From NCBI GenBank assembly GCA_009667805.1, contig CM019066.1, forward strand, positions 115,248,190 to 115,312,189: 64,000 nucleotides of DNA, in the 5' to 3' direction. Positions 35,176 through 59,557 of this stretch are shown one piece after another; position 1 is the first letter of the stretch, and the number at the start of each line of letters is the position of its first letter. The notes beneath the pieces were generated by a model. It made no database searches. It saw only the letters and a list, made by a program, of their open reading frames with translations, and was not told the DNA's origin. The translations under genes and the position numbers were made by a program. Origin of the DNA: Leptobrachium leishanense (taxonomy: Eukaryota > Chordata > Amphibia > Anura > Megophryidae).

Positions 35176-35927
35176 TTAACCTCCCTGGCGGTCTGATTCA
35201 GACATATTTTATATGTTAGAATCGGTACCATTTATTCAGCCTCCTAGCGGTATCCTGAGTGTGGTGCGGTGTTAACTTCCATTGCTGAAAGTGGTAACCC
35301 CGAGCCACACTCGGGCTGGATACATACCTGTCCCTGCGCCAGAGCCGTAGCTAGCTCCTTTTGCCCCCGAGGCAAAAACAGAAAATTGCGCCCCCCCCCA
35401 CATAATTTTAAAAATCAGAGTCCCCGACCAGTGGCGCAGTGCTAAGCTCCTGGATGCTCCCCGCGACCAGAAGCAGTGGATCGGACCACCCTTTGCGCTG
35501 TGGGATGAGAGGCAAGTATGTGATTTTTGGGGGTTTCCAGCTGGTGCTGACTGATTCTGCAGAAGCGGCATCACTTAGCACCAGCATCTAGCTGTGGGTA
35601 ACTTTTGTAGCTATGGCGGGATGGTAATTAGCGTTAGGACTTTGTAATCCTAACGCTATTTACTCTGCGCTCCCCATGTTAAGTATAAGGAGCGCAAAGT
35701 ACAGTAACCTCGTGCTGAAAAGCACAATCTCCTGGATTTTTTAACCTGTTACCGTTGGGAATGTAATATGAGGGTCCTGTGCTAGGATGTGATATGGGCA
35801 GCATGCAGTAACCTCATTTAACCTAGCACCAACGCTCACATGTGTGAGTGCTAGCGTTAAGGAGGTGATGGGGCCCTACATATATAGAGCACACACAGTA
35901 CATATACAAATACACACAGAATACATG

Positions 35928-36965
35928 TGTAGCGCTGGTTTTAAATCCCCTGCCGTTGTAGTACTTGTTTTTGGCCACCGGAGGGAGACAAGTGCGATGT
36001 GAGACACTGAACATTGGGACTACATTTCCCAGCATGCTTTGGGAGCGGACACAGGAAGTGGATGGGACACAGATGCTGACATCCTGAGCCTCGTGGAGAG
36101 AGCTGGCAGAACGCGCCAGGGAGTGAGAGAAGCAAGACACAGTGCTGCAGAGCGTGACAGTGACCAGGCCGGAGCACAGCTGGGGCCTGACAGAGATAAA
36201 GACCGGGTTATTCAGCCTTACAAGAGAAAGACCCAGTGATTCACCAGAATACCCACACTGATATCGAGTGAGCTGGAGGACCCCGAGTTAGGAGCACCGC
36301 AGATCGATCTGACAGGGAGTGCAGGCGGTGAGCTGGACATCTTGCGGCAGCTAAAGGAAAGCAAGACAGCGGATCCGGTAACCCATAGAATCCCAGTCAA
36401 AATCGAGCAGAGAGACGTCCTGGGTCGAGCGGAGCACCAAGTATCTGGCGGATGGGTGAGAGGCCTTCCAGGCCGTTGTGAAAATAGAAAGCACGCTGCT
36501 GTTTGTTTAAAAAACCCACAGGGCCCCAACTTGACTAGTCGAAGATACCTCATAAATAATTCACTGGCCAGTTGAATATTGTACCCGGGTACCATCGCAC
36601 ACACACACCTATATTTTTGGGACATAACCTGTACGGGACTCACTCCCCAACCACAAAGGGGGTTAAAGATATATTTTTCTCTTTTCCGCTGCGCGTGTCT
36701 CGAATTACGAAGCATTGTATTTCTTTTCCGCTGCGCGTTTTGTCGAATTATGAAGCATTGTATTTCTTTTCCGCTGCGCGTTTCCCGCATTGCGAAGTAC
36801 TGTAAATATATATACGTATACCGTGTTATTCATTATATGCCATTTATTCTAGTAAACTATAGAATTTATAAAATCCACGACGGTGCTGGAGTATATTTAT
36901 TCCCTAGTGCAGGGAGACTGACCTGAGGTTCAATTTCAGCGGCTCCTCCGGGAGTGAGCGCTACA
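35928..36965 (+). repeat. 5' LTR of the gypsy element
   Basis: A 1038-bp LTR with TGTAGCGC...GCGCTACA ends. A block of three tandem modules (about 36683-36800) shares TTTCCGCTGCGCG, CGAATTACGAAGCATTGTAT and T-rich spacing. At 36507-36515, where the 3' LTR has TTATAAAAC, this copy reads TTAAAAAAC, so its TATA-like box is lost. Confidence 0.95.
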
Positions 36966-36967
36966 CG

Positions 36968-36987
36968 TGGGGGCTCGTTTCCGGGAT
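36968..36987 (+). promoter_or_regulatory. primer binding site, tRNA-Pro-like
   Basis: TGGGGGCTCGTTTCCGGGAT begins two bases after the LTR. It matches the known tRNA-Pro primer site used by some vertebrate retroviruses, except for two extra T residues in the middle. Either the primer is a variant tRNA or the site has changed. Confidence 0.7.
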
Positions 36988-37023
36988 CCAGTCTCTGGAA
37001 AAAACGCATTTAAAGGGTTAAAT

Positions 37024-38515
37024 ATGGATCCAGACACTGCTGCTGAGTGGTGTGAGGAGCACAGTAGTCAGTTAGAATTGTGTATAGTCATGGATATTCC
37101 TGCAGACACTTGGGCCGAAGATCAGATTCGCCAGGCCGTAGCCGCGCTGACGCCAGATCATCAGGGGTTAATCCTGGACATTAAAGAGAACCCAGATACC
37201 TCTCACATGTATGTTCTTTTTGAGTGGAGAAAGGGTGTTTCAGTGTGTTTTTCAGGGCGCGAGCGTGAAGCTGACCGATGAGGTGGAAGTCCAACTGACT
37301 CAGCCAAGTGCGCCACGTGGCGAATCTGCGAGTGTTCCCGCGCCCAGTCCGTTGGCCATGATCGGGCCTGAATTTATAGTGGCTATTGGAGATTTGCTGG
37401 CTAAGTGTCAGAGAACAAGCCCTCCGCACACTAACTTCGGTTATCGACGGTTGAGAAATTTTACAGGAAACGTACCAACTCCGGCGGGAGAAGAAACCTT
37501 CGAAGAATGGGTGGAACAGGCGATGCAGGCTCTGGATGAGTGGGACGTCCCTGAAGCACAGAAAAAGCAAAGGATCACCGAAAGCTTAAAGGGACCTGCG
37601 TCAGAGGCTGTAAGAAACCTAAAATTGAGTAAGAAAGACTGCACTGCTTTAGATTATTTAAATGTTCTGGAGGAAATTTTTGGGCGAACGGAAAAGGCTG
37701 CAGAGCTCGTATATCAGTATGAACACACCTACCAGCGGAAAGGTGAGAGAATGACCGAATATATGAGGCGCCTAGATAAGATTCTGCACCAGATACTCCT
37801 CAAGAAAGGGGCCGAACTGGCTGAAGTGGATAAGATCCGAATAAAACAGATCCTGAGGGGCGCTCAACCTCTAGATCCAGTGATGCTGCAGCTGAGAAGC
37901 AGAGAAGGTAATCAAGAACTGAAGTACCTGGAACTGATCCGAGCTGTCAGAGAGGAGGAGGCTTTACTGGAAGAGAAATCCTTCAGGAGAGGAGAAAGAG
38001 CTTACGTGCAACCTGTGCGGCATAACGAATGTTTGCAGCCTGAAAGTGACTCGTTGGATACATATGGATCCGACGTGGACGAACAAGAGCATCTGATCGC
38101 TTTTAAATCCACAGAGAGGGCTGTCAAAGAATTAAACCTCTCTGCACATGGTGAGTTGCACAAAACTGTTAAGAAAGTACAAGAGGCTCAAGCTGAATTG
38201 CAACAGGCGCACGCGGAACTGTGCCGAGTATTGTTGAAGGTGACAGAGATGCAGACAGAGATGCAGAAGTTCCTTACAGGCATGCAGACAACCGGAGTTG
38301 CTGTGGCGTTTAGCCAGGGTCTTTCACCTGAATCACAGCAGGCGACTGCGTCTCCGCTTCCTAAGAAGAGATGTTTCAGTTGTGGAGAAATGGGCCACTT
38401 CCGCGCACAATGCAAAGGCCAAAAGCCTGAAGGAAATAGAGTTGAGGAGCTTTTGAAAGCCTTGGAAGGACTGTTATCCACCTCACTGGCGGGAAACGCC
38501 AGAGGGCACAAGTGA
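37024..38515 (+). pseudogene. gag: gag, PNMA-like capsid with CCHC zinc knuckle; one frameshift
   Basis: The first part (ATG at 37024, frame ends 37281) holds MDPDTAAEWCEEHSSQLEL, which resembles the N-terminus of the PNMA (paraneoplastic Ma) family. The rest lies one frame over (37211-38515, 434 codons) and includes NFTGNVPTPAGEETFEEW, QALDEWDVPEAQKKQRI, ESLKGPASEAVRNLK and QILRGAQPLDPVM, again the PNMA capsid pattern. A frameshift at about 37220-37280 separates the two parts. A knuckle C-X2-C-X4-H-X4-C sits at 38372-38413. A coiled-coil-like stretch (about 38150-38280) precedes it. The protein would assemble the particle and bind element RNA. The stop is TGA at 38513; pol continues in another frame. 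Confidence 0.85.
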
Positions 38516-40608
38516 AGGAGCAACCTAGGTGCCCGGAGGTCGAAACCCGCTCCAAAAATCAAGCCAGGGCTAAGAGGGCGAGAGGGCCCAAAGTCTGGCC
38601 AACTGCTGAACCTGCCAGGACTGAAAGAGTCACTCCCTTAGCATCCGGACCTACGTCATGGGGAAGCAATGCACACCCAAAACCTACACGGGCCAAAAAG
38701 TAGGCCAGGGTACAACAAACTGGGTCTAAGTGTCCTGGTGCCACCACCAAGTTTCCTGACCAGCTGATAGGTCCTTCTCCTATTGTGCCAATCCAAGTGG
38801 AGGGAGTCTACACTAAAGCCCTGTTGGATTCAGGGGCTCAAGTGACATTGATCTATCGAGACTTCTACGAGAAACACTTGAAGCACATTCCTCTACAGAA
38901 ATTGAAGGATCTGGAAATCTGGGGTATCGGGACGGAGAAACTCCCTTATGACGGGTATCTACAGGTGAAGTTGGAGATCGGATCCGAAGTCATCGGACAG
39001 TCCGGAGGTTGTGATGCGTTGGCCAATGTGTGTCCTCGGCCTTCAGGGGCAAACAGGAGTTCCATGATAGTGGGGACGAATACTGATTTGGTGCGACGTC
39101 TCCTGACACCTATTGTATTGGAAGAAGGTTCTACTAAAGGAGTACACCCAATGTTACGTCAAGTCTACCAGAGAATGGTCGAAGAACAGAAGACACCTGC
39201 TGAAGTGGGGCGCCTGTGGAGATTGGAAGGAACAGAGAAGGTTCTGCAAGCGGGAGAAGTAGCGAGTTTCCGGGCTTCAGTCAAGTTGAACGGATCGCAT
39301 CCAGGTCCCTATGTGGTACTGGAAACCGATTTTAATCATGGGAGTGAAGCCGGAGTAGAAGTAATCCCTGAAATAATCTCCACTAAAGCTTTGAAAAGAA
39401 CACGAGGAAGAGTCTCAGTCAGCGTGGGCAATGTGTCTGATTCTCCAGTAGTCCTTAAAGCACGAATGCCTATCGGGCAAGTAGCGTCCGCTACGCCCCT
39501 CTCTCCTACCGATTTAGGAGGGGGAGTGGATAAAGAGATTCCAGATGAAAGATTCTACCCCAAGGACGCTCCCATTTCACCTGAATGGAAGAAACGTCTT
39601 CAGTCTCAAGTTCTAAAGTGGAGAGAATTGTTCTCGAAAGATGAGTTCGACGTAGGCCTAGCTAAGAGTACTGAGCACCGCATTCGATTACAAGAAAACA
39701 AGCCGTTTTGTGAAAGGTCAAGACGAGTTTCGCTGGGAGACTTGGATGATCTACGAGAACAGCTGAATGAACTGCAAAGAACCAAGGTGATCCAAGAGTC
39801 CAGGAGCCCATATGCATCTCCAATAGTAATGGTCCGGAAGAAGAATGGTTCTGTCCGCCTATGCATAGACTATCGCACGCTGAATCGGAGAACCATCCCA
39901 GATCAATATGCTACTCCTCGGATAAAAGATGCCTTACAGTGTTTGTCTGGAGCAAAATGGTTTAGTGTACTAGACCTGCGAAGTGGGTATCACCAGATAC
40001 CAATGCATCCTGAAGACAAAGAGAAGACTGCGTTCATCTGCCCATTGGGGTTCTTCGAATTCAACAGAATGCCTTAAGGCCTTACGGGGGCTCCAGCCAC
40101 GTTCCAACGGTTAATGGAGAAGACAGTCGGGGACATGAAGCTGATTGAAGTATTAGTGTACCTGAATGACATAATTGTGTTTGGGAAGACTCTGGAAGAA
40201 CATGAGCAACGTTTGGAGAAGGTCTTGAAGAGGCTCCATGAAGAGGGATTGAAACTGTCTCTGGAGAAATGTCAATTCTGTTTACCGTCTGTTACGTATC
40301 TGGGACATGTGGTCTCGGCAGAAGGCGTTTCGACAGATCCTCGGAAGTTGGAGGCCGTAGCTTCTTGGCCTACACCCCGCAATGTCACTGAACTTAGATC
40401 TTTCTTGGGGTTCTGTTCCTATTATCGAATATTTGTAGGAGGATTCGCAAAAATAGCTCAACCACTGAACAAGCTCCTACAGAAGGAAAGTACAGAAGAA
40501 GGTCACAAGGTCTCCGACCGAAATCCGTTAGCTCCAGGCCAAGGACAGCTTGAGAGTCCATCCAGGGAGAGTGGACCAGTCAGTGTGAAGGTGCTTTTAC
40601 GAAGCTGA
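38512..40608 (+). pseudogene. pol: pol part 1: protease and reverse transcriptase, with two internal stops
   Basis: The frame opens at the end of gag, in the -1 frame relative to it. It is stopped by TAG at 38701, resumes with an aspartic protease carrying LLDSGAQVT (Asp about 15 codons after 38785), then a linker, then RT. RT landmarks are RLCIDYRTLNRRTIPD, SVLDLRSGYHQIPM (first catalytic Asp), then a TAA stop at 40075 in the MP-x-GLTGAP motif, then VYLNDIIVFG at about 40156-40185. The box normally reads YxDD; its first Asp is Asn here (AAT at 40165). YLGHVVSAEGVSTDP and LRSFLGFCSYYR follow. The frame is lost between about 40498 and 40570, before RNase H. Confidence 0.9.
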
Positions 40609-41081
40609 AAGAGAGTTTAACTCGAGCTCCTGTCTTGGCCTATGCGGACCCTCACAAGCCGTACAAGTTACATGTGGATGCCAGCAGAGAAGGTCTAGGA
40701 GGAGTCCTGTATCAAGAGTATGGTGGATTGCTGAGGCCTGTAGCGTATGTGAGCCGGAGCCTTACGCCTTCCGAAAAGAACTATCCTACCCACAAGTTGG
40801 AGTTCCTAGCCTTAATGTGGGCAGTGGTAGACAAGCTAAAGGACTATCTGTATGGGGCCGAGTTTGTGATAAAGACGGATAACAATCCTCTTACCTACAT
40901 CCTTACTACTGCAAAACTGGACGCAACGGGACATCGGTGGTTGGCCGCTCTGTCAGGGTTTCGGTTCAGCCTGAAGTATCGCCCTGGGGTGAATAATCGA
41001 GATGCTGATGCTTTTTCGAGAAGACCCTACACTACAGAATGGACTCAGTTAACTCCAGACGGGGTCCAAGCTTTGTGTTAA
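40572..41081 (+). pseudogene. pol: pol part 2: RNase H domain
   Basis: In a different frame from the RT. Four acidic catalytic positions are present: LHVDASREGLGG (D), HKLEFLALMWAV (E), VIKTDNNPLTYI (D) and NNRDADAFSR (D). The open part runs from 40635 (first usable start) but homologous sequence begins upstream at about 40572. A TAA at 41079 ends it, 51 bases before the integrase frame, which continues in the same frame. The domain would remove the RNA strand during reverse transcription. Confidence 0.9.
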
Positions 41082-41132
41082 GGAGCAGAGCGCCGGGTCA
41101 AGGGAGGGATTGAAGAGGAGGCCATAGGAGTC

Positions 41133-43082
41133 ATGGCTGCGGCTGTTCCGGAGTTCTACTGTAACCCTACGCAATTGAGGGATGAAAGTCTACCTACCTT
41201 TTCAAAACAGGATCTGAAAGCTGATCAGGCCAGAGACCCTTTAATTGCGTTAACCATAAAGGCCCTAACTGCGAACCAGCGGGAAATTCTGCTGACCAAT
41301 TCCCCAGATGGAGCCAGATTGGTCTACAAAGAGTGGGAACGGTTGAAGATGTTGGATGGGGTGGTCTACCGAAGGGGCCCCTCAACCAATGCTGAAGAGA
41401 CCCAACAGTTATTCCTTCCCACTAAACATAGGGAGAGTGTGCTGCGATCGCTACATGATGAGCATGGACATTTGGGCGCTGAAAGGACTTTTAAGCTGGT
41501 GCGAGACAGGTTCTATTGGCCTTGCATGAGAGCTGAAGTGGAAAGTTACTGCCATTCATGTCTAAGGTGTATTCAAAGGAAGACCCTACCGACCCGAACC
41601 GCTCCAATGAGCCATCTGCAAAGTCAAGGACCCATGGATTTGGTGTGCATTGACTTCCTGTGCTTAGAGCCGAATGCTAGTGGGCAGGGAAATATTCTTA
41701 TAGTGACTGATCACTTCACACGTTACGCCCAAGCCTTTTCCACGAAAGATCAGCGCGCTCCGACAGTGGCGAAGGTCCTGATGGAAAAGTTCTTTGTTCA
41801 CTACGGTCTACCAAGGAGAATACACTCTGATCAGGGTAGAGACTTTGAAAGCCGGCTTGTCGGGCAACTACTGGAACTGTTGGGAATCCAAAAGACCCGA
41901 ACTACACCATATCACCCTCAAGGTGATGCTCAGCCTGAAAGGTTCAATCGCACGTTGCTAAATATGCTGGGGACACTGTCAAACACAGAAAAGCAGAGCT
42001 GGAGTCGTCACATAGCTACGCTAGTACATGCATATAACAGTACGGAAAGTGATGCCACTGGATACTCACCGTACCGTCTTATGTTTGGAAGGGAAGGCCG
42101 ACTGCCGGTTGATTTGGCGTTTGGGCTATCTCTGGACCAGACGTCGGTAGCTTCCCATAGAAATTATGTGGATAGACTTCGAAAGAATCTGGCCTCTGCG
42201 TTTGACCAGGCCCGTTTGACCTCAGGAAACAGGGAACAGAGGAATAAACGGAACTATGACTTGAAAGTTCGGATACAGGATTTACAACCCGGTGATAGGG
42301 TTTTGTTGAAGAACTTGGGTGCTGCTGTGAGGCACAAGTTAGCGGATAGATGGAGTTCTCAAGTCTACATTGTCTGCAAGCAACTGCCGGGTCTGCCGGT
42401 GTATCAAATCCGGCCGGATGGAAAGGCTGGGCCTCTTAAGAACTGGCACCGGAATCATTTACTACCTTTGAGAGAGGCTGTGAGGATACCAGTTGGGGAC
42501 GAACTTTCTCTGCCAAATCCGCCTGCTCCACGTTTGCCTCCCGTTACTCGGTCTCAGCAGACCCGGGCTGTCGAAGAGAGCGAAAGGGACAGTGAGGAAG
42601 AGAGTTTTTGTCTGGACTGGATGCGCTCACCGGAACCTGAAGAGGCTATCTCGGTTCCTCAACGGTGGGAAAGTAATTTGAGGCCTGAAGCCCCTGAATT
42701 TCAGTTAGAAGTCTCCGAGACTATTGAAATCCCTGTAGTTCCTGAAGCTGAATCTTATGACTACAGTTCTATGCCTTCACTGGAAGGATCATACTCCGAA
42801 GAGATGTCTGCTCCAGTGGTAGAAAGAAGAACTGAACCCGCGCCTGTAATACTTCCACCTGAAGAGGAACTGATTGAGCCAGAACCAAAACGCTCTGTTC
42901 GACCGCCCCAGAGACTCACCTACGACTCACCAGGAAATAGCACTGAAGAGGCCGTCACCACAGTGCGAAGGTTGCCTGAAGTGTCTGCTATGTTAGCTGA
43001 GGTAGTCCAAAGCATGAGTCAACTTGAGGAAGTGTATATAACCCATTGTATGCTTGCTGCTGAGCCTGTATATGTTGCCTAA
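41133..43082 (+). CDS. pol: pol part 3: integrase, open and with all catalytic residues
   Basis: An uninterrupted 649-codon frame. The zinc-binding region has H108-x4-H113 and C143-x2-C146 (RSLHDEHGHLG, CHSCLRCIQRK). The catalytic core has D174 (VCIDFL), D233 (HSDQGRDF) and E269 (QPERFNR), with the standard 35 residues between D233 and E269. A chromo-like or GPY/F-type tail (about 385-450) contains PGDRVLLKN and RNHLLPL. The last 200 residues are proline/glutamate-rich and acidic, with no known domain. This is the only intact portion of pol, in frame with RNase H but cut off by the TAA at 41079. No env follows. Confidence 0.9.
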   Translation: MAAAVPEFYCNPTQLRDESLPTFSKQDLKADQARDPLIALTIKALTANQREILLTNSPDGARLVYKEWERLKMLDGVVYRRGPSTNAEETQQLFLPTKHRESVLRSLHDEHGHLGAERTFKLVRDRFYWPCMRAEVESYCHSCLRCIQRKTLPTRTAPMSHLQSQGPMDLVCIDFLCLEPNASGQGNILIVTDHFTRYAQAFSTKDQRAPTVAKVLMEKFFVHYGLPRRIHSDQGRDFESRLVGQLLELLGIQKTRTTPYHPQGDAQPERFNRTLLNMLGTLSNTEKQSWSRHIATLVHAYNSTESDATGYSPYRLMFGREGRLPVDLAFGLSLDQTSVASHRNYVDRLRKNLASAFDQARLTSGNREQRNKRNYDLKVRIQDLQPGDRVLLKNLGAAVRHKLADRWSSQVYIVCKQLPGLPVYQIRPDGKAGPLKNWHRNHLLPLREAVRIPVGDELSLPNPPAPRLPPVTRSQQTRAVEESERDSEEESFCLDWMRSPEPEEAISVPQRWESNLRPEAPEFQLEVSETIEIPVVPEAESYDYSSMPSLEGSYSEEMSAPVVERRTEPAPVILPPEEELIEPEPKRSVRPPQRLTYDSPGNSTEEAVTTVRRLPEVSAMLAEVVQSMSQLEEVYITHCMLAAEPVYVA

Positions 43083-43138
43083 AATGTGTTGAAATGTAAT
43101 GCAACTGTTGTACCTCCTTGGAGAGACCCAAGAGTTCT

Positions 43139-43151
43139 AGGAGGGGGAGAG
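43139..43151 (+). promoter_or_regulatory. polypurine tract
   Basis: AGGAGGGGGAGAG lies immediately before the 3' LTR. Position and purine content are what plus-strand priming requires. Confidence 0.9.
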
Positions 43152-44187
43152 TGTAGCGCTGGTTTTAAATCCCCTGCCGTTGTCGTACTTGTTTTTGGCC
43201 ACCGGAGGGAGACAAGTGCGATGTGAGACACTGAACATTGGGACTACATTTCCCGGCATGCTTTGGGAGCAGACACAGGAAGTGGGTGGGACACAGACAC
43301 TGACATCCTGAGCCTCGTGGAGAGAGCTGGCAGAGCGCGCCAGGGAGTGAGAGAAGCAAGACACAGTGCTGCAGAGCATGACAGTGACCAGGCCGGAGTG
43401 CAGCTGGGGCCTGACAGAGATAAAGACCAGGTTATTCAGCCTTACAAGAGAAAGACCCAGTGATTCACCAGAATACCCACGCTGATATCGAGTGAGCTGG
43501 AGGACCCCGAGTTAGGAGCACCGCAGATCGATCTGACAGGGAGTGCAGGCGGTGAGCTGGACATCTTGCAGCAGCTAAAGGAAAGCAAGACAGCGGGTCC
43601 GGTAACCCATAGAATCCCAGTCAAAATCGAGCGGAGAGACGTCCTGGGTCGAGCGGAGCACCAAGTATCTGGCGGATGGGTGAGAGGCCTTCCAGGCCGT
43701 TGTGAAAATAGAAAGCACGCTGCTGTTTGTTTATAAAACCCACAGGGCCCCAACTTGACTAGTCGAAGATACCTCATAAATAATTCACTGGCCAGTTGGA
43801 TATTGTACCCGGGTACCATCACACACACACACCTATATTTTTGGGACATAACCTGTACGGGACTCACTCCCCAACCACAAAGGGGTTAAAGATATATTTT
43901 TCTCTTTTCCGCTGCGCGTTTCTCGAATTACGAAGCATTGTATTTCTTTTCCGCTGCGCGTTTCTCGAATTACGAAGCATTGTATTTCTTTTCCGCTGCG
44001 CGTTTCCCGCATTGCGATGTGCTGTAAATATATATACGTATACCGTGTTATTCATTATATGCCATTTATTCTAGTAAACTATATAATTTATAAAATCCAC
44101 GACGGTGCTCGAGTATATTTATTCCCTAGTGCGGGGAGACTGACCCGAGGTTCAATTTCAGCGGCTCCTCCGGGAGTGAGCGCTACA
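43152..44187 (+). repeat. 3' LTR of the gypsy element
   Basis: 1036 bp, about 97% identical to the 5' LTR by eye. It keeps TATAAAA at 43732-43738, lost in the 5' copy. The triple module (43907-44020) is present and more uniform than in the 5' LTR. It could still drive outward transcription toward the minisatellite beyond it. Confidence 0.95.
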
Positions 44188-44221
44188 CATGCATGTATAG
44201 CAAAAGAATATTTAGCATAAT

Positions 44222-44850
44222 ATACACCCCCCCAGAATAATATACACAGCACTGAGCCCCCAGACTATTTTCCCCAGTTCACATGTATATAATTGCCCCC
44301 AGTTCCCATGGATATTATTGACCCCAGCTCACATGGATATTATTGACCCCAGCTCATATGGATATTATTGACCCCAGCTCACATGGATATTATTGACCCC
44401 AGCTCAAATGGATATTATTGACCCCAGCTCATATGGGTATATATTGCCCCAGTTCACATGGATATGCCCCCCCAGCTCTCATGGATATTGCCCCAGCTCT
44501 CATGGATAATGCCCCAGGTCTCATGGATAATGCCCCAGCTCTCATGGATATGCCCCCAGCTCTCATGGATATGCCCCCAGCTCTCATGGATAATGCCCCA
44601 GGTCTCATGGATAGTGCCCCCAGGTCTCATGGATATTACCCCCAGGTCTCATGGATAGTGTCCCCAGGTCTCATGGATATTACCCCCAGGTCTCATGGAT
44701 ATTGCCCCCAGGTCTCATGGATAGTGCCCCCAGGTCTCGTGGATATTACCCCCAGGTCTCATAGATATTGCCCCCAGGTCTCATGGATATTACCCCCAGG
44801 TCTCATGGATATTGCCCCCAGGTCTCATGGGTATTGCCCCAGCTCACCTC
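44222..44850. repeat. minisatellite of CTCATGGATATTGCCCCCAGG units
   Basis: About 25 units, each ending in C(A/T)(C/T)ATGGATA(T/A)T. The first units (44300-44440) are about 28 bp (GACCCCAGCTCACATGGATA), the later ones about 21-23 bp. The open frame at 44418-45029 reads through the units as a monotonous M-D-x-A/P repeat and is not a gene. Confidence 0.85.
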
Positions 44851-46042: not shown

Positions 46043-46177
46043 ATTGGCTTCTCAGCTGTTCCATGGCCAGGTGTGTGATATTCCCTCATTACCCCAATTA
46101 CAATGTGCAGATAAAAGGTCCAGAGTTCATTTCAAGTGTGCTATTTGCATTTGGAATCTGTTGCTGTCAACTCCAAG

Positions 46178-47219
46178 ATGAGATCCAAAGAGCTATCACT
46201 ATCAGTGAAGCAAGCCATCATTAGGCTGAAGAAACAAAACAAACCCATCAGAGATTTAGCAAGAACATTAGGCGTGGCCAAAACATCTGTTTGGAACATT
46301 CTCAAAAAGAAGGAACGCACCGGTGAGCTCAGCAACACCAAAAGACCCGGGAGACCACGGAAAACAACTGTGGTGGATGACCGAAGAATTCTTTCCCTGG
46401 TGAAGAAAACACCCTTCACAACAGTTGGCCAGATCAAGAACACTCTCCAGGAGGTAGGTGTATGTGTGTCGAAGTCAACAATCAAGAGAAGACTTCACCA
46501 GAGTGAATACAGAGGGTTCAACACAAGATGTAAACCATTGGTAAAACTCAAAAACAGGAAGGCCAGATTAGAGTTTGCCAAACAACACCTAACAAAGCCT
46601 TCACAGTTCTGGAACAAGATCCTATGGACTGATGAGACCAAGATCGACTTGTACCAGAGTGATGGGAAGAGAAGAGTATGGAGAAGGAAAGGAACTGCTC
46701 ATGATCCTTCCTAAGCATACCACCTCATCAGTGAAGCATGGTGGTGGTAGTGTCATGGCGTGGGCATGTATGGCTGCCAATGGAACTGGTTCTCTTGTAT
46801 TTATTGATGATGTGACTGCTGACAAATGCAGCAGGATGAATTCTGAAGTGTTTCGGGCTATATTACCTGCTCACATTCAGCCAAATACTGCAGAACTCAT
46901 TGGACGGCGCTTCACAGTGCAGATGGACAATGACTCAAAGCATACTGCAAATGCAACAAAAGAGTTTTTGAAGGGACAGAAGTGGAATGTTATGCAATGG
47001 CCAAGTCAATCACCTGACCTGAATCCCATTGAGCATGCATTTCACTTGCTGAAGACAAAACTGAAGGGAAAATGCCCCAAGAACAAGCAGGAACTGAAGA
47101 CAGTTGCAGTAGAGGCCTGGTAGAGCATCACCAGGGATGAAACCCAGCGTCTGGTGATGTCTACGCGTTCAAGACTTCAGGCTGTGATTGACTGCAAAGG
47201 ATTTGCAAACAAGTATTAA
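46178..47219 (+). pseudogene. Tc1 transposase, one frameshift and one nonsense codon
   Basis: It starts at the ATG at 46178. Residues 1-55 form the paired-like helix-turn-helix region, and GRPR at 58-61 is the AT-hook-like minor-groove motif that links the two DNA-binding halves. The catalytic triad is D152 (WTDE), then in the other frame D (QMDND, 46926) and E (NPIEH, 47031), giving a DD34E spacing. The first frame ends at 46714 in a TAA that lies just before the TTSSVKHGGGSVM block, so a small deletion near 46705-46714 breaks it. A TAG at 47121 interrupts the last third. The C-terminus resumes and ends at TAA 47217. Confidence 0.95.
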
Positions 47220-54098: not shown

Positions 54099-56650
54099 AC
54101 ATGGATAACCAATTCCTCCTTTATCTTCAATGATGTGGTGAGAGATCAACTGTTCATGTACAAGGAGACTTGTCAAAGTTCCTATTGCTCTCAAACCCTC
54201 TTGAACTTCAATATTAAGATGTCAGTTGCTGTGATTTTTTTTCTATACCCTAATTAATGGCGTCAAAGGATGTCTAATGCTTCTAGGCCAACTGTGCTGC
54301 TTTAGTGAAATGAGGACACAGCTTTAATGAATGATTAAGCGCTCCCTGTTCTGGTGGTATCTTCTTTGTATAGCTCTCAAGATTATGTAGTAAAATACTG
54401 AAAGCCACAATGTTGTCAGACGTCACTCCGCCGAGTGGGTCTGCAATGTGTACGTGAGCCTCCGGCCACCTGTGTCTTTTATACAACCAGCAGCCTGTCG
54501 CTCGTGTGACGTCTTTGCGGATGCACCGATGCGCACACGCACGTTCTGGTGCTCACTGATGAGGTCAACCATCAGGGTAAAGGGCGCACTATTTGAACTG
54601 CAATCTTGAACTCATAGGTGTCCTTTCCTGGTTTTCAATATATTCTGACCCTTAAGCGCATACATTACTTATATTATCTGACTACTCCTGGTTTGACCCG
54701 GCTTTGGCTAACAGATTCATGTACCTCTAACGGACCCGATTATCTCTGCTCCTCCTGTTGCTTGGCTCTTCGCCTCTTACTGTGCATATCATATATTGCT
54801 CTATTTTTTTCCCTCTGTTCAGTCGTTTCTTGCCAACTAAGTAAAGACTGGTGTTTCTCTTCCGTATTGCTGTCCCTGCCTTCTACGTCACTTCTTTGTT
54901 TCATCATTGCTATTTACAGCCACATCAAGGACTGGTATTGAACCTGGCTGAAGGGCTTCCTAGCTCTGCATATCGGCTTGTCCCGGAATGCACCCCAGAT
55001 TCCCCTAACCCAAACCTCACAAATGTAAGGTTGCATATAAATATGGCTACTACTACGTGTGTTATGGGTCAGCTATGGCACAGTTCTTTGAGGGAGGATG
55101 AGCAGGAGGGTACACAAGTCCTAGTTATACCATGCTATCTGGTATATGGAATTAGACGTGAACAATGTGTTGTTTGCACACCTTAGGGAGGGCTTGATTG
55201 AATTGTTTCTGGTATGATGCCTCTCATTGGGGTGTGAGACGAAGGTTCGAGGTGTCCGCTATGGCTACCCATTTTTTTCACCAAATTAACCTGTCACTTC
55301 TAAAATATCCCTTGAGCCACGTCATGTGTAATCATTTTTTTCCATTTAGAATTTTGGTTACAAAGTATGTCCCAAGGTGAAATGGATAAACTCAATGACT
55401 AAACTAAGAAACAGAATTAAATGTAAGTATATCTTCCATATTAAATATGTCTCAAATGTGGTCTGAAAAGGTGGCACAGCTACACACTGAACCGGTGAAG
55501 ATGAGCTGCCATACCTCAGAGCTTATTCAGAGGCACATCAGGCCGTGTTCAATCTGGAAAGAATCTCCGAGATGAAAGCAATTGCTGTGACCGAAAATGC
55601 AAGAATAGTTGGAGTAAAAAGAAAACACACTCATGTATGGGGAAAAAGCAAATAGAGTGCATTTTATATGATAATTTTTTTGTCATATTTTGTTTGATGG
55701 ATTTCTCGCTACCAGAGGGTATTTTATTGTATGTATTTATTTATTTATTTAGTCATTTTATGAGATATTTAAGTTATTCCTGTGTTCTTTCTAAAATTGT
55801 ATTTTCTTTTTCATTTAGCTTAACGTAAATCAGAAAACATGGTGGACACGTTTTGAAATAATTATGTACATAATGAAAGTCATCCTGGCTTTGTTATCAC
55901 ACCATCTGACAAATACATGGAAATAGAAAGACGGGGCTCTTCTGTATTATTGTGCGAATATTAAAAGCATTTCTTTGAAATAATGCTAGCCTCTTTATAT
56001 CAAAAGGTTGATATGTTACCCTCTCAAACGGCAATAAAAGAAGCTCTGTTTGGAATGACGAATACGATGTTGCTTCTCTCTTAAGAACGGTCTCCTAGGG
56101 TTGAGAAAAAAAAGATTCTTCAGAGTATTGATATTTGTCAAAGTTTAATTAATTTTTCACAACTTTCAAGTCATGGGATTGTGACAGATATCCTTTCGTC
56201 TGCAGTCAAGAATTGACACGAAGTTTTAAAATGTAAATATATATTGAGTTTAGTGTTAGGCAGTGGTAATTAATCAATGCCATTCTGCATCGGAAAAGTG
56301 CAAATGATTCATCGACTTTCCTTGCTTTACCTGCATCCACATTTTTTATTTATTTTTCTGTTTTAGTAGCTTCTATTTTCTTAAAACAGATGAATTATAT
56401 GCAGCCTTGGCATTGTATTTGTGAATGATTGGCTTACAAATGGTGGAAGGGATGAAAAACTGGTTCGGCATATATATATAGTGTAGTAAACACTTTTTTA
56501 TTCTGTGCTTTTGAGATTTTTCACGCAGACAGGTTTTCATTGCCTTCAATATACCTACATGTATAATTGTAAATGGCCTGTGCTTTTATTCTGGTTATAA
56601 ATGTTGATTGTCACCCATATTATTTACTATTAACTAAACTCCATTCATAA
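54099..56650. other. no recognisable gene; possible worn retroelement part
   Basis: From 54640 to 54990 the plus strand is C/T-rich, with words like TTTGACCCGGCTTTGGC and CCGATTATCTCTGCTCC that recall LTR-retrotransposon flanks. No LTR pair, RT motif or target duplication supports that. The remainder is AT-rich. Confidence 0.35.
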
Positions 56651-57066
56651 TCTTTTTCTCCAAGTTCTCTTCTTGTGATGTCCCTCAGAGAAAACACAGA
56701 AAATAGATCATAGTGCGACCTGTATATAATGTCATATATATATGAATAAGGTGGTAGCACTCACATGAATTAGAACCCTCCTGGTTCTAGGTATGTTCAC
56801 TTTAGGGATATTGTTGGCTTCCCAAAAACCTTTTCAAAGACGAATCACTGGATCCCCATCAGGTTTCCAAGGATGGAGGTTGAATTCACTTCAGCAATAC
56901 ACAATGGGAATCAGATGAAGTTCCGTGTAAGTAACTGATGGTAGGTGGTTGGAATCAGGTAAAGCTCGGTATAGGTAGCTAATAATATGGAGATTCTCAA
57001 ATAAAAAGAAACTCCAAAACAGGGTAAAAAATTTAATAAAATAATAAAAACAAATAAGGCAAATAA

Positions 57067-57120
57067 ACCAGAACGCGTTTCACCAATACATTAAAGTATC
57101 AAAAGGCTTCCTCAGCTGGC
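57067..57120 (-). ncRNA. hammerhead ribozyme motif, left arm
   Basis: Read on the minus strand it has GCCAG (helix I), CTGAGGA (core, CUGANGA), a helix II able to pair GATAC with GTATT, then GAAA, CGCG (very short helix III), TT, and CTGG (helix I). All core positions fit, including A15.1-U16.1. The tiny helix III is the minimal form known from Penelope elements, which works as a dimer. Confidence 0.7.
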
Positions 57121-57508
57121 TAATTTGAAATGACCATATTATGGCTTATATACTTATTCCCATTGACTGCCATCCAATCACAGCCGTCTAATTTGGCAAG
57201 AGCCTGGAGCTACCAATGGGAACTTAACTTTCGGTATACAGGGCCAATCTTAGTCATAAATTTTGGCGGGAAATAAATACACCCAGGGGTTCAGCACACT
57301 CCATCTCTATAATTATCCCTCTAATATATTGTTGAGCTATTTATATAGGAGTTGATCCTGACTGATTGAGATTAGAAATAGTTAGTTATTCGTCATGTAA
57401 ATTATTTGGAGATATGATGTCTTTATGGGTGAGGGTGGATTATAGGATGTTCCGTGGTCAAAATGTTTTTGGTTTCCTATATGGGACCTTCTGTTTATAT
57501 ATTTGGAT

Positions 57509-58140
57509 TGTAGAGTTCTGACACTAGCGCACACGCGCGGGTTTTTCGTTTCGTTTTTCAGCCGAATACGATCCGTTTGGTCGGATGTGACTGCACTTCG
57601 TACGTAATACTCCCCCCTTTTTTTGCACGCATGTGTGGGGCTCTATTATTCTGTTGTGGAGCCTCCGAGCGATGGTGCGTATGTACGAGATTTCGTTTTT
57701 CCATCGATCGGATTGGTCACACATAATGAAAGTTAAAATCCAATTGGGTGTACCCATTTCCCGCCAAAACGTATGATTAAGATTAGCCCTATATACTGAA
57801 AGTTATGTTCTCATCGATTGTAACTCTGTTTGGACCATAGAGTTTCCGATACTAGCGCATATGCGCGGGTTTTCGTTCCATCTTTCCAGCGATCCGTTTT
57901 TTTCGTTGGATGCGATTGTACTTAGTACGTAATATTTTCGTCTTTTGCGCACATATGTGGGGCCTTATTATTTTTTCGTGGAGCCTCCGAACGTCGGCGC
58001 GCACGCGCGAGGTTTCGTTTTTCCATCGATCGGATTGGTTATACAAAACGAAAGTCAAAATCTAATTGGGTGTATTTATTTCCCGCCAAAATTTATGACT
58101 AAGATTGGCCCTGTATACCGAAAGTTAAGTTCCCATTGGT
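57509..58140 (+). repeat. two direct repeats of about 320 bp in the Penelope spacer
   Basis: Copy 1 begins TAGAGTTCTGACACTAGCGC (57509) and copy 2 TAGAGTTTCCGATACTAGCGC (57838). Both then run through GCGCGGGTTTT, TACGTAATA, GTGTGGGGC, GAGCCTCCGA, CATCGATCGGATTGG, AATTGGGTGTA and CCCGCCAAAA. They differ by scattered substitutions. Copy 2 merges into the right arm. Confidence 0.85.
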
Positions 58141-58231
58141 TGCTCCAGTCTCTTGCCAAATTAGACGGCTGTGATTGGATGGCAGTCAATGGGAATAAGT
58201 ATATAAGCCATAATATGGTCATTTCAAATTA

Positions 58232-58285
58232 GCCAGCTGAGGAAGCCTTTTGATACTTTAATGTATTGGTGAAACGCGCTCTGGT
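58232..58285 (+). ncRNA. hammerhead ribozyme motif, right arm (one core-adjacent change)
   Basis: The same parts as the left-arm motif: GCCAG, CTGAGGA (58237-58243), the GATAC/GTATT helix II, GAAA (58271-58274), CGCG, then CT instead of TT, and CTGG. The T-to-C change removes the U16.1 that pairs with A15.1, so this copy is likely weak or dead. Confidence 0.65.
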
Positions 58286-58955
58286 TTATTTGCCTTATTT
58301 GTTTTTATTATTTTATTAAATTTTTTACCCTGTTTTGGAGTTTCTTTTTATTTGAGAATCTCCATATTATTAGCTACCTATACCGAGCTTTACCTGATTC
58401 CAACCACCTACCATCAGTTACTTACACGGAACTTCATCTGATTCCCATTGTGTATTGCTGAAGTGAATTCAACCTCCATCCTTGGAACCTGATGGGGATC
58501 AGTGATTCGTCTTTGAAAAGGTTTTTGGGAAGCCAACAATATCCCTAAAGTGAACATACCAAGAACCAGGAGGGTTCTAATTCATGTGAGTGCTACCACC
58601 TTATTCATATATATATGACATTATATACAGGTCGCACTATGATCTATTTTCTGTGTTTTCTCTGAGGGACATCACAAGAAGAGAACTTGGAGACAAAGAT
58701 TACAAACGGGACACTGTATTCTGTGAAGGACATTGATATCGCTACACCATTTTTTATTTTTGTTTATTCCTGTGATGGTTGAGTAACAAGGACCATTAGG
58801 TGTATAAGCGATTTTCCTATATCGATCCATTTATCAGCGCTACATTATCCTCTTTGTTCATTTAAACTCCATTCATATTGGGCCAATTTTAAATGGCCTA
58901 GTGTTCACTAAACGTCTGGTCTTGGATTTCATCTTCATTTCACATGTAACACTGT

Positions 58956-59137
58956 CAGGGTTATTCAGAGAAAGGTGAAACTCTGGAGAACGTTTGAAGA
59001 AGTGAAAATTCAAGGTCAAAATAGCTGATTTGGAAAGTGAGATAAATGGGAGAATTTTTCTGGTTTGGCTATTTTGACCTAGAATTTTCATGTCTCCAAA
59101 AGTTATCCAGAGTTTCACCTTTCTCTGAATAACCCTG
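58956..59137. mobile_element. short palindromic GGTTATTCAGAGA MITE, copy B3
   Basis: The ends CAGGGTTATTCAGAGAAAGG and CCTTTCTCTGAATAACCCTG are perfect inverted repeats, flanked by TGT on both sides. The interior is inverted relative to copies B1 and B2 (GATTTGGAAAGTGAGATAAA), as a palindromic element can insert either way. Confidence 0.95.
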
Positions 59138-59427: not shown

Positions 59428-59557
59428 GGTCCATATTACATAGTTGGTACTAACTTAACCAGAGCTGTTGTAAACTTCCCAGACCCATTATAACCTATGG
59501 AGGTTTTAAGTTTACAACAGCTCTGGTTAAGTTAGCACCAACTTTGTAATATGGCCC
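59428..59557. mobile_element. palindromic MITE, GTTGGTGCTAAC family, copy 2
   Basis: GGGTCCATATTACATAGTTG on the left and CAACTTTGTAATATGGCCC on the right are the ends, with TAACTTAACCAGAGCTGTTG and CAACAGCTCTGGTTAAGTTA forming the inner arms. The best preserved copy of the three. Confidence 0.85.

What the first reader, a model, noticed from the sequence alone, without database searches (positions are those of the whole stretch)
56651..58862. Penelope-derived 2.2-kb fold-back carrying two opposed hammerhead motifs
Two arms of about 640 bp are near-perfect inverted copies, each with a CTGAGGA...GAAACGCG core, and a 15-bp repeat flanks the whole unit. Hammerheads of this minimal kind are established in Penelope-like elements. 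An element made only of two opposed ribozyme-bearing units, without RT or endonuclease, would be a non-coding passenger of Penelope machinery, comparable to plant retrozymes but inverted. That interpretation is inference.
Basis: partly seen in the sequence, partly recalled or inferred. Interest (0 to 1): 0.75.

Follow-up and report, generated by a model that had tools for sequence, protein, structure and literature searches.

The report
Two-armed Penelope-type insertion with hammerhead motif
A 2.2-kb non-coding insertion in a frog genome has two mirror-image arms, each with a hammerhead-ribozyme-like motif; it looks like a fairly ordinary Penelope-type retrotransposon insertion, whose copies often carry an inverted terminal repeat, rather than a new kind of two-ribozyme element.

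Summary
Arms 56650-57285 (-) and 58067-58702 (+) are 98.9% identical, each carries CTGAGGA...GAAACGCG, and an exact 15-bp duplication flanks the unit. The unit is asymmetric: the right copy runs 160 bp past the left arm's outer end and begins at 57286. Inverted shortened arm, one-sided tail and target duplication match published Penelope-like (PLE) insertions (PMC3846280), and a PLE enzyme extends both target strands from two internal start sites in vitro (PMC11167929). So the fold-back is best read as one PLE-driven insertion, not a dedicated two-ribozyme element. Only the left-arm motif meets a post-hoc minimal type I descriptor (0.05 expected per 64 kb); the right arm lacks U16.1; Rfam finds no hammerhead at E<=10. 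The motifs lie on opposite strands; a transcript across both arms folds arm to arm (629 of 636 bases). No PLE coding remnant was found with 186 proteins. The host looks like Leptobrachium leishanense or a relative. The window's own genome could not be searched, so PLE identity rests on anatomy and motif, and a recurrent family is untested. New member of a known kind; low interest.

The parts
56635..56649 (.). left copy of the 15-bp target-site duplication
58863..58877 (.). right copy of the 15-bp target-site duplication
56650..57285 (-). left arm: inverted, shorter copy; outer end corresponds to about 58700-58702, inner end to 58067
57286..58862 (+). right, longer copy of the element (1577 nt)
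58067..58702 (+). right arm, the part duplicated in the left arm
58703..58862 (+). one-sided 160-bp 3' extension (tail), absent from the left arm
57502..57820 (+). subrepeat A, 77% identical to subrepeat B; no CTGANGA core
57829..58142 (+). subrepeat B, whose end lies in the right arm; no CTGANGA core
57060..57127 (-). left-arm hammerhead-like motif: helix I 6+5 bp, helix II, A15.1-CGCG-U16.1; predicted cleavage after 57072; meets the minimal descriptor with one extra nt after A9
58225..58292 (+). right-arm hammerhead-like motif: same helices I and II but C instead of U at 16.1 (58279); fails the descriptor
58034..58178 (+). five ATTGG (inverted CCAAT) boxes, the densest such cluster in the window; three of them also in the left arm
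58200..58207 (+). TATATAAG, about 25-30 nt upstream of the hammerhead 5' strand (right arm); promoter role inferred
57145..57152 (-). the same TATATAAG in the left arm, facing outward; promoter role inferred

Best explanation
The unit is one retrotransposition product of a Penelope-like element (PLE) machinery: a non-coding piece of PLE-type terminal-repeat sequence (promoter-like module, minimal hammerhead, downstream leader) inserted in both orientations at one staggered break. Inferred steps: an RNA that includes the promoter region, hence read through from an upstream unit or promoter, served as template; a PLE RT-EN made a staggered cut; the 3' end on each side primed cDNA on an element RNA, starting at two internal sites (equivalents of about 58701 and 58862), giving a left copy that reads antisense and a right copy that reads sense; the two cDNA ends were joined head to head at 57285/57286; the 15-nt overhang became the target duplication. 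Shown: the anatomy (inverted shortened arm, one-sided tail, 15-bp duplication, hammerhead-like motif, no coding remnant found). Inferred: PLE origin, two-strand priming, promoter role, any self-cleavage.
For: An exact 15-bp duplication surrounds the whole and is not repeated at the inner junction (4 of 15 matches), so one insertion. Shortened inverted arm and one-sided tail match PLE copies in passages of PMC3846280 (inverted pLTR 37 bp shorter, 31-bp tail optional on one inverted pLTR, duplications of 8-10 bp where present, head-to-head most frequent, putative TATA box in the pLTR). PMC11167929 (parts 1-2 of 4) reports a PLE enzyme that cuts and extends both strands, starting at two internal sites. 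The left-arm motif gives 1 descriptor hit in the window against a mean of 0.05 (maximum 1) in 60 first-order Markov windows; 0 of 33 matches to the bare core pattern in prokaryote genomes complete the motif. A one-pair helix III with palindromic tetraloop is described for an axolotl retrozyme hammerhead in PMC7229834. Ten of the 186 PLE-like RT proteins collected are from L. leishanense.
Against: No PLE coding sequence in the unit: best tblastn E = 0.18 with 186 proteins, no Pfam match above cut-off in 10 ORFs. The tail is 160 bp against 30-40 bp published, and the duplication is 15 bp against 8-10. Rotifer PLE inverted junctions contain palindromes; none of 6 bp or more (loop up to 12) lies within 60 bp of this one. 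Rfam gives no hammerhead at E<=10. The motif has an extra A after A9 and a G-U in helix II; fold energies are ordinary (z -0.85 and -1.11), the lowest-energy fold adds pairs inside the core, and windows that cut helix I fold otherwise. The descriptor was written after seeing the motif. In the anole PLE the ORF begins at stem II; here no ORF of 120 codons or more (stop to stop) overlaps the unit (longest 99). No other copy or PLE DNA of this genome was compared.
Confidence: 0.72

Rival explanations
1. A self-standing non-coding fold-back family, mobilised in trans by PLE proteins, that propagates with both opposed arms.
For: No coding sequence found; both arms keep a TATA box, three or more ATTGG boxes and the hammerhead core; PMC3846280 reports non-coding sequences captured between pLTRs and surrounded by target duplications.
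Against: RNA spanning both arms folds almost wholly arm to arm (629 of 636 bases, -1407 kcal/mol), a poor template; the promoter-like modules face outward, so they would not make a spanning RNA (inference); the outer ends are unequal; only one copy is known, and only the window could be searched for others.
Confidence: 0.08
2. Same PLE insertion, but the inverted arm arose by self-priming or template switching on one (perhaps antisense) template, as proposed for rotifer PLEs, or by twin priming on a tandem-dimer RNA, not by priming of both target strands.
For: Head-to-head arrangement; PMC3846280 argues for self-priming on antisense RNA.
Against: The palindrome that signals self-priming in rotifers is absent at 57285/57286; the two outer ends sit at different element positions, which fits two separate starts.
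Confidence: 0.3
3. A Foldback-type or other TIR DNA transposon.
For: Long inverted arms and a target duplication.
Against: The arms are not terminal on the right: 160 bp lie between arm and duplication, and the outer ends do not match (8 of the first 30 bases); no transposase among 10 ORFs tested.
Confidence: 0.04
4. The hammerhead resemblance is not a working ribozyme: a relic or chance core in this repeat.
For: Rfam negative; extra A after A9; right arm without U16.1; ordinary fold energy.
Against: Full core plus 6+5-bp helix I in the left arm, 0.05 expected per window for a laxer descriptor; the core sits just downstream of a TATA box. The anole PLE hammerhead itself cleaved only with protein present, so weak folding is not decisive.
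Confidence: 0.25

Closest known systems
Penelope-like element insertions with inverted pLTR (Pen2a_Av and kin; PMC3846280, passages seen)
   Same: Inverted shortened terminal repeat beside a direct one, head to head, one-sided tail, short target duplication; non-coding sequences between pLTRs are reported
   Different: No RT-EN ORF here; tail 160 bp instead of 31; arms about 640 bp instead of about 200; duplication 15 instead of 8-10 bp; no palindrome at the inner junction
Poseidon of Anolis, PAc (PMC11167929, parts 1-2 of 4 read)
   Same: Hammerhead near the start of the unit; enzyme cuts and extends both strands from two internal start sites, which explains the tail
   Different: PAc ORF begins at stem II of the hammerhead; here no ORF follows it. 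In PAc hammerhead mutants still inserted, so the motif may not matter for insertion
Animal non-LTR retrozymes (PMC7229834, PMC7761336, passages seen)
   Same: Non-coding, type I hammerhead with a weak helix III in amphibians, PLE suggested as the mover
   Different: Those are direct tandem repeats of about 170-400 nt giving circles; here the motifs are inverted and the ~320-bp subrepeats carry no hammerhead core
Foldback / TIR DNA transposons (recalled)
   Same: Long inverted arms with target duplication
   Different: Arms not terminal on one side; outer ends do not match

Membership tests
Penelope-like element | minimal type I hammerhead in the terminal repeat | tested here: inconclusive
   left arm meets a post-hoc descriptor, right arm does not; Rfam finds none
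Penelope-like element | inverted and direct terminal repeat with one-sided tail and target duplication | tested here: met
   against passages of PMC3846280; lengths and the missing junction palindrome differ
Penelope-like element | RT plus GIY-YIG EN ORF | tested here: not met
   10 ORFs without Pfam match above cut-off; 186 proteins, best E 0.18. Hence not filed as an autonomous PLE
Penelope-like element | nucleotide match to a PLE terminal repeat of the same genome | not tested
   The genome search gave no answer in 11 tries
Hammerhead ribozyme (Rfam) | score above the Rfam gathering cut-off | tested here: not met
   0 matches in the window; no hammerhead among 4 matches at E<=10 in 56600-58900; no positive control for PLE-type motifs was run
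Hammerhead ribozyme | self-cleavage | not testable with these tools
   needs a transcription assay
Animal retrozyme | tandem direct repeats each with a hammerhead | tested here: not met
   only two CTGANGA cores in the unit, on opposite strands; subrepeats A and B lack it
Foldback/TIR DNA transposon | inverted arms at both outer ends | tested here: not met
   160-bp right extension, outer ends do not match

The most novel reading that the evidence does not exclude
A non-coding family that moves as the fold-back itself: two outward-facing promoter-hammerhead modules, mobilised in trans by PLE enzymes, each arm releasing a short ribozyme-headed RNA while read-through RNA is a long double-stranded hairpin that may feed small-RNA silencing.
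Probability: 0.07. Interest if true: 0.6.

Novelty: new member of a known kind. Interest (0 to 1): 0.22.

Why it matters
If the reading is right, this apparently young insertion is a natural record of what a PLE enzyme does in vitro: extend both target strands from two start sites. A genome-wide set of such fold-backs would let the start sites, overhang length and end-joining of PLE insertion be measured in a vertebrate. As a single copy it adds little beyond the published PLE structures.

Tried and rejected
Rfam at gathering and at E<=10 gave no hammerhead. Pattern scans for the motif gave 0 in viral contigs and 33 loci in prokaryote genomes; blastn of the element against those loci gave nothing at E<=0.01 and 0 of 33 complete the motif, so I take them as chance. 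RNA hairpins ending at the two presumed start sites looked suggestive but are ordinary (z -0.59 and -0.86; they also shift with the stretch folded). Weak Pfam matches, all below cut-off (Tertiapin 0.036, DUF7023 0.068, MADF 0.016), were dismissed. Two separate neighbouring insertions were rejected: the bases after the inner junction do not repeat the duplication (4 of 15). A later inverted duplication was judged unlikely because the duplication flanks the outer ends of the whole. Hits of PLE gene models at 46259-47204 (best E 5.7e-09) come from two models, P0124 and P0168, whose listed Pfam domains include transposase domains, and lie at the Tc1 copy; weaker scattered hits elsewhere in the window (E 0.004 and up) were not followed.

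Age estimate: 5 substitutions in 636 bp between arms, with the anuran rate of 1-3e-9 quoted in a passage of PMC12822217, gives roughly 1.3-4 million years; gene conversion between the arms could make it look too young.

Literature searches; only the held open-licence library. Searches (0 papers) gave nothing on such fold-backs in their listings. Cervera and de la Pena 2014, the key paper on PLE hammerheads, is not held; what I say of PLE hammerheads comes from passages of later papers. That CTGANGAAG...GAAACG is a common animal PLE motif is recalled, from no call, as are the hammerhead numbering and the NUH rule.

Full report
What was checked. The sequence and repeat searches confirm two arms, 56650-57285 on the minus strand and 58067-58702 on the plus strand, 98.9% identical over 638 columns (the last 2 columns run into the duplication). 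Within the arm there are 5 substitutions and 2 one-base indels. An exact 15-bp repeat, TAAACTCCATTCATA, stands at 56635-56649 and 58863-58877; it is the only exact 15-mer repeated at 2.0-2.5 kb spacing in the window. No further copy of the element lies in the window.

Anatomy. The unit is not a symmetric palindrome. The left arm corresponds to 58067-58702 only. The right copy is longer at both ends: it begins at 57286 and continues to 58862, 160 bp beyond the place where the left copy stops; the two outer ends of the unit do not match (8 of 30 bases). Between the arms lie 781 nt, most of it two 77%-identical subrepeats, 57502-57820 and 57829-58142, the second ending inside the right arm. Upstream of the right-arm hammerhead are five ATTGG boxes at 58034-58178, the densest cluster in the window (5 in 146 bp; best outside the unit 3; mean 0.17), TTTCCCGCC at 57757 and 58079, and TATATAAG at 58200. 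The left arm keeps three of the boxes (57174, 57213, 57244) and a TATATAAG at 57152 (-), facing the other way. Read as promoters (inference), the two modules fire outward, with starts expected at about the 5' strand of each hammerhead.

The hammerhead. In RNA form the left arm reads CAAAU-U-AGCCAG-CUGAGGA-A-GCC...GGU-GAAA-CGCG-U-U-CUGGUU-U-AUUUG: a helix I of 6+5 bp across a U-U mismatch, the invariant core, a short helix II that needs one extra A after A9, and a helix III of one pair with a palindromic CGCG loop. The lowest-energy folds contain helices I and II in both arms but also a few pairs inside the core; energies are not unusual (z -1.11 left, -0.85 right), and two stretches that cut helix I fold otherwise. 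A descriptor of this layout, written after seeing the motif and allowing 0-1 extra nt, finds one site in the window, the left arm, against a mean of 0.05 (maximum 1) in 60 first-order Markov windows. Of 33 matches to the bare core pattern in prokaryote genomes, 0 complete it. The right arm fails because position 16.1 is C (58279). Rfam reports no hammerhead; I ran no positive control for PLE-type motifs, so this is weak evidence against. Passages of PMC7761336 and PMC7229834 say PLE hammerheads are minimal variants lacking helix III or tertiary contacts, and that an axolotl retrozyme motif has a one-pair helix III with a palindromic tetraloop and cleaves better as a dimer.

Why not a two-ribozyme machine. 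The motifs lie on opposite strands, so any transcript has at most one in sense, and the tandem dimer that helps weak type I motifs cannot form within this unit. A transcript across the unit folds arm to arm (629 of 636 left-arm bases; -1407 kcal/mol) and buries the motif, while the right copy alone (57286-58862) folds with the hammerhead helices present.

What made it. Passages of PMC3846280 describe the typical Penelope insertion: direct pLTRs plus an adjacent inverted, shortened pLTR, an optional tail at the end of one inverted pLTR, most often head to head, with short target duplications in several but not all copies; non-coding sequences captured between pLTRs also occur. PMC11167929 (parts 1 and 2 of 4 read) shows a purified PLE enzyme that cuts and extends both strands of its target and starts at two internal positions on the RNA, which explains the tail; hammerhead mutants still inserted, and that hammerhead cleaved only with protein. 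The present unit has this anatomy on a larger scale (arms 640 against about 200 bp, tail 160 against 30-40, duplication 15 against 8-10). I therefore infer a single PLE-driven insertion in which both sides of a staggered break received element cDNA. Rotifer PLE junctions carry palindromes, taken as signs of self-priming; none of 6 bp or more lies within 60 bp of this junction, which favours two separate starts, but self-priming or twin priming on a tandem RNA remains possible.

Coding content. None of 10 ORFs of the unit has a Pfam match above cut-off. tblastn with 120 PLE-like proteins against the window gives nothing in the unit below E 0.34, and with 186 proteins against 56500-59000 nothing below 0.18. 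Ten of those 186 are from L. leishanense (6, 4 more; both lists capped at 120), so a source of enzyme plausibly exists in the host. P0131, P0140 and P0142 were read; calling them PLE rests on recalled motifs and on GIY-YIG names or domains of related entries.

Host. The Gypsy integrase ORF at 41082-43082 is 94% identical over 97% to an L. leishanense protein, and the 13 best hits are from that frog.

Limits. No other copy of the unit could be sought in its own genome: the genome search gave no answer in 11 tries. So PLE identity rests on anatomy and motif, and a recurrent fold-back family is unlikely but untested.

Noticed in passing
35927-44191: Ty3/Gypsy-type element with LTR-like repeats 35927-36969 and 43151-44191, 97.1% identical, a gag-like ORF with PNMA and zinc-knuckle matches, and RT and integrase ORFs; the integrase ORF is up to 96% identical to L. 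leishanense proteins.
   Followed up: partly
44272-44840: Tandem array of 22- and 25-bp units right of the right LTR, overlapping a stop-to-stop frame of 210 codons.
   Followed up: no
46115-47123: Tc1-type transposase remnant in two overlapping frames; only the first frame was scanned and has Tc3-type matches.
   Followed up: no
58956-59137: Short palindromic repeat with 70-nt arms (91%) close to the right of the insertion, MITE-like.
   Followed up: no
59428-59557: Second short palindrome with 50-nt arms (94%), MITE-like.
   Followed up: no
58034-58178: Five ATTGG boxes at 31/39-bp spacing upstream of a TATA box, an NF-Y-like promoter array inside the element; two more in subrepeat A at 57712 and 57743.
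   Followed up: partly
58703-58862: Tail of 160 bp, several times longer than the 30-40 bp tails of published PLEs; not explained.
   Followed up: partly
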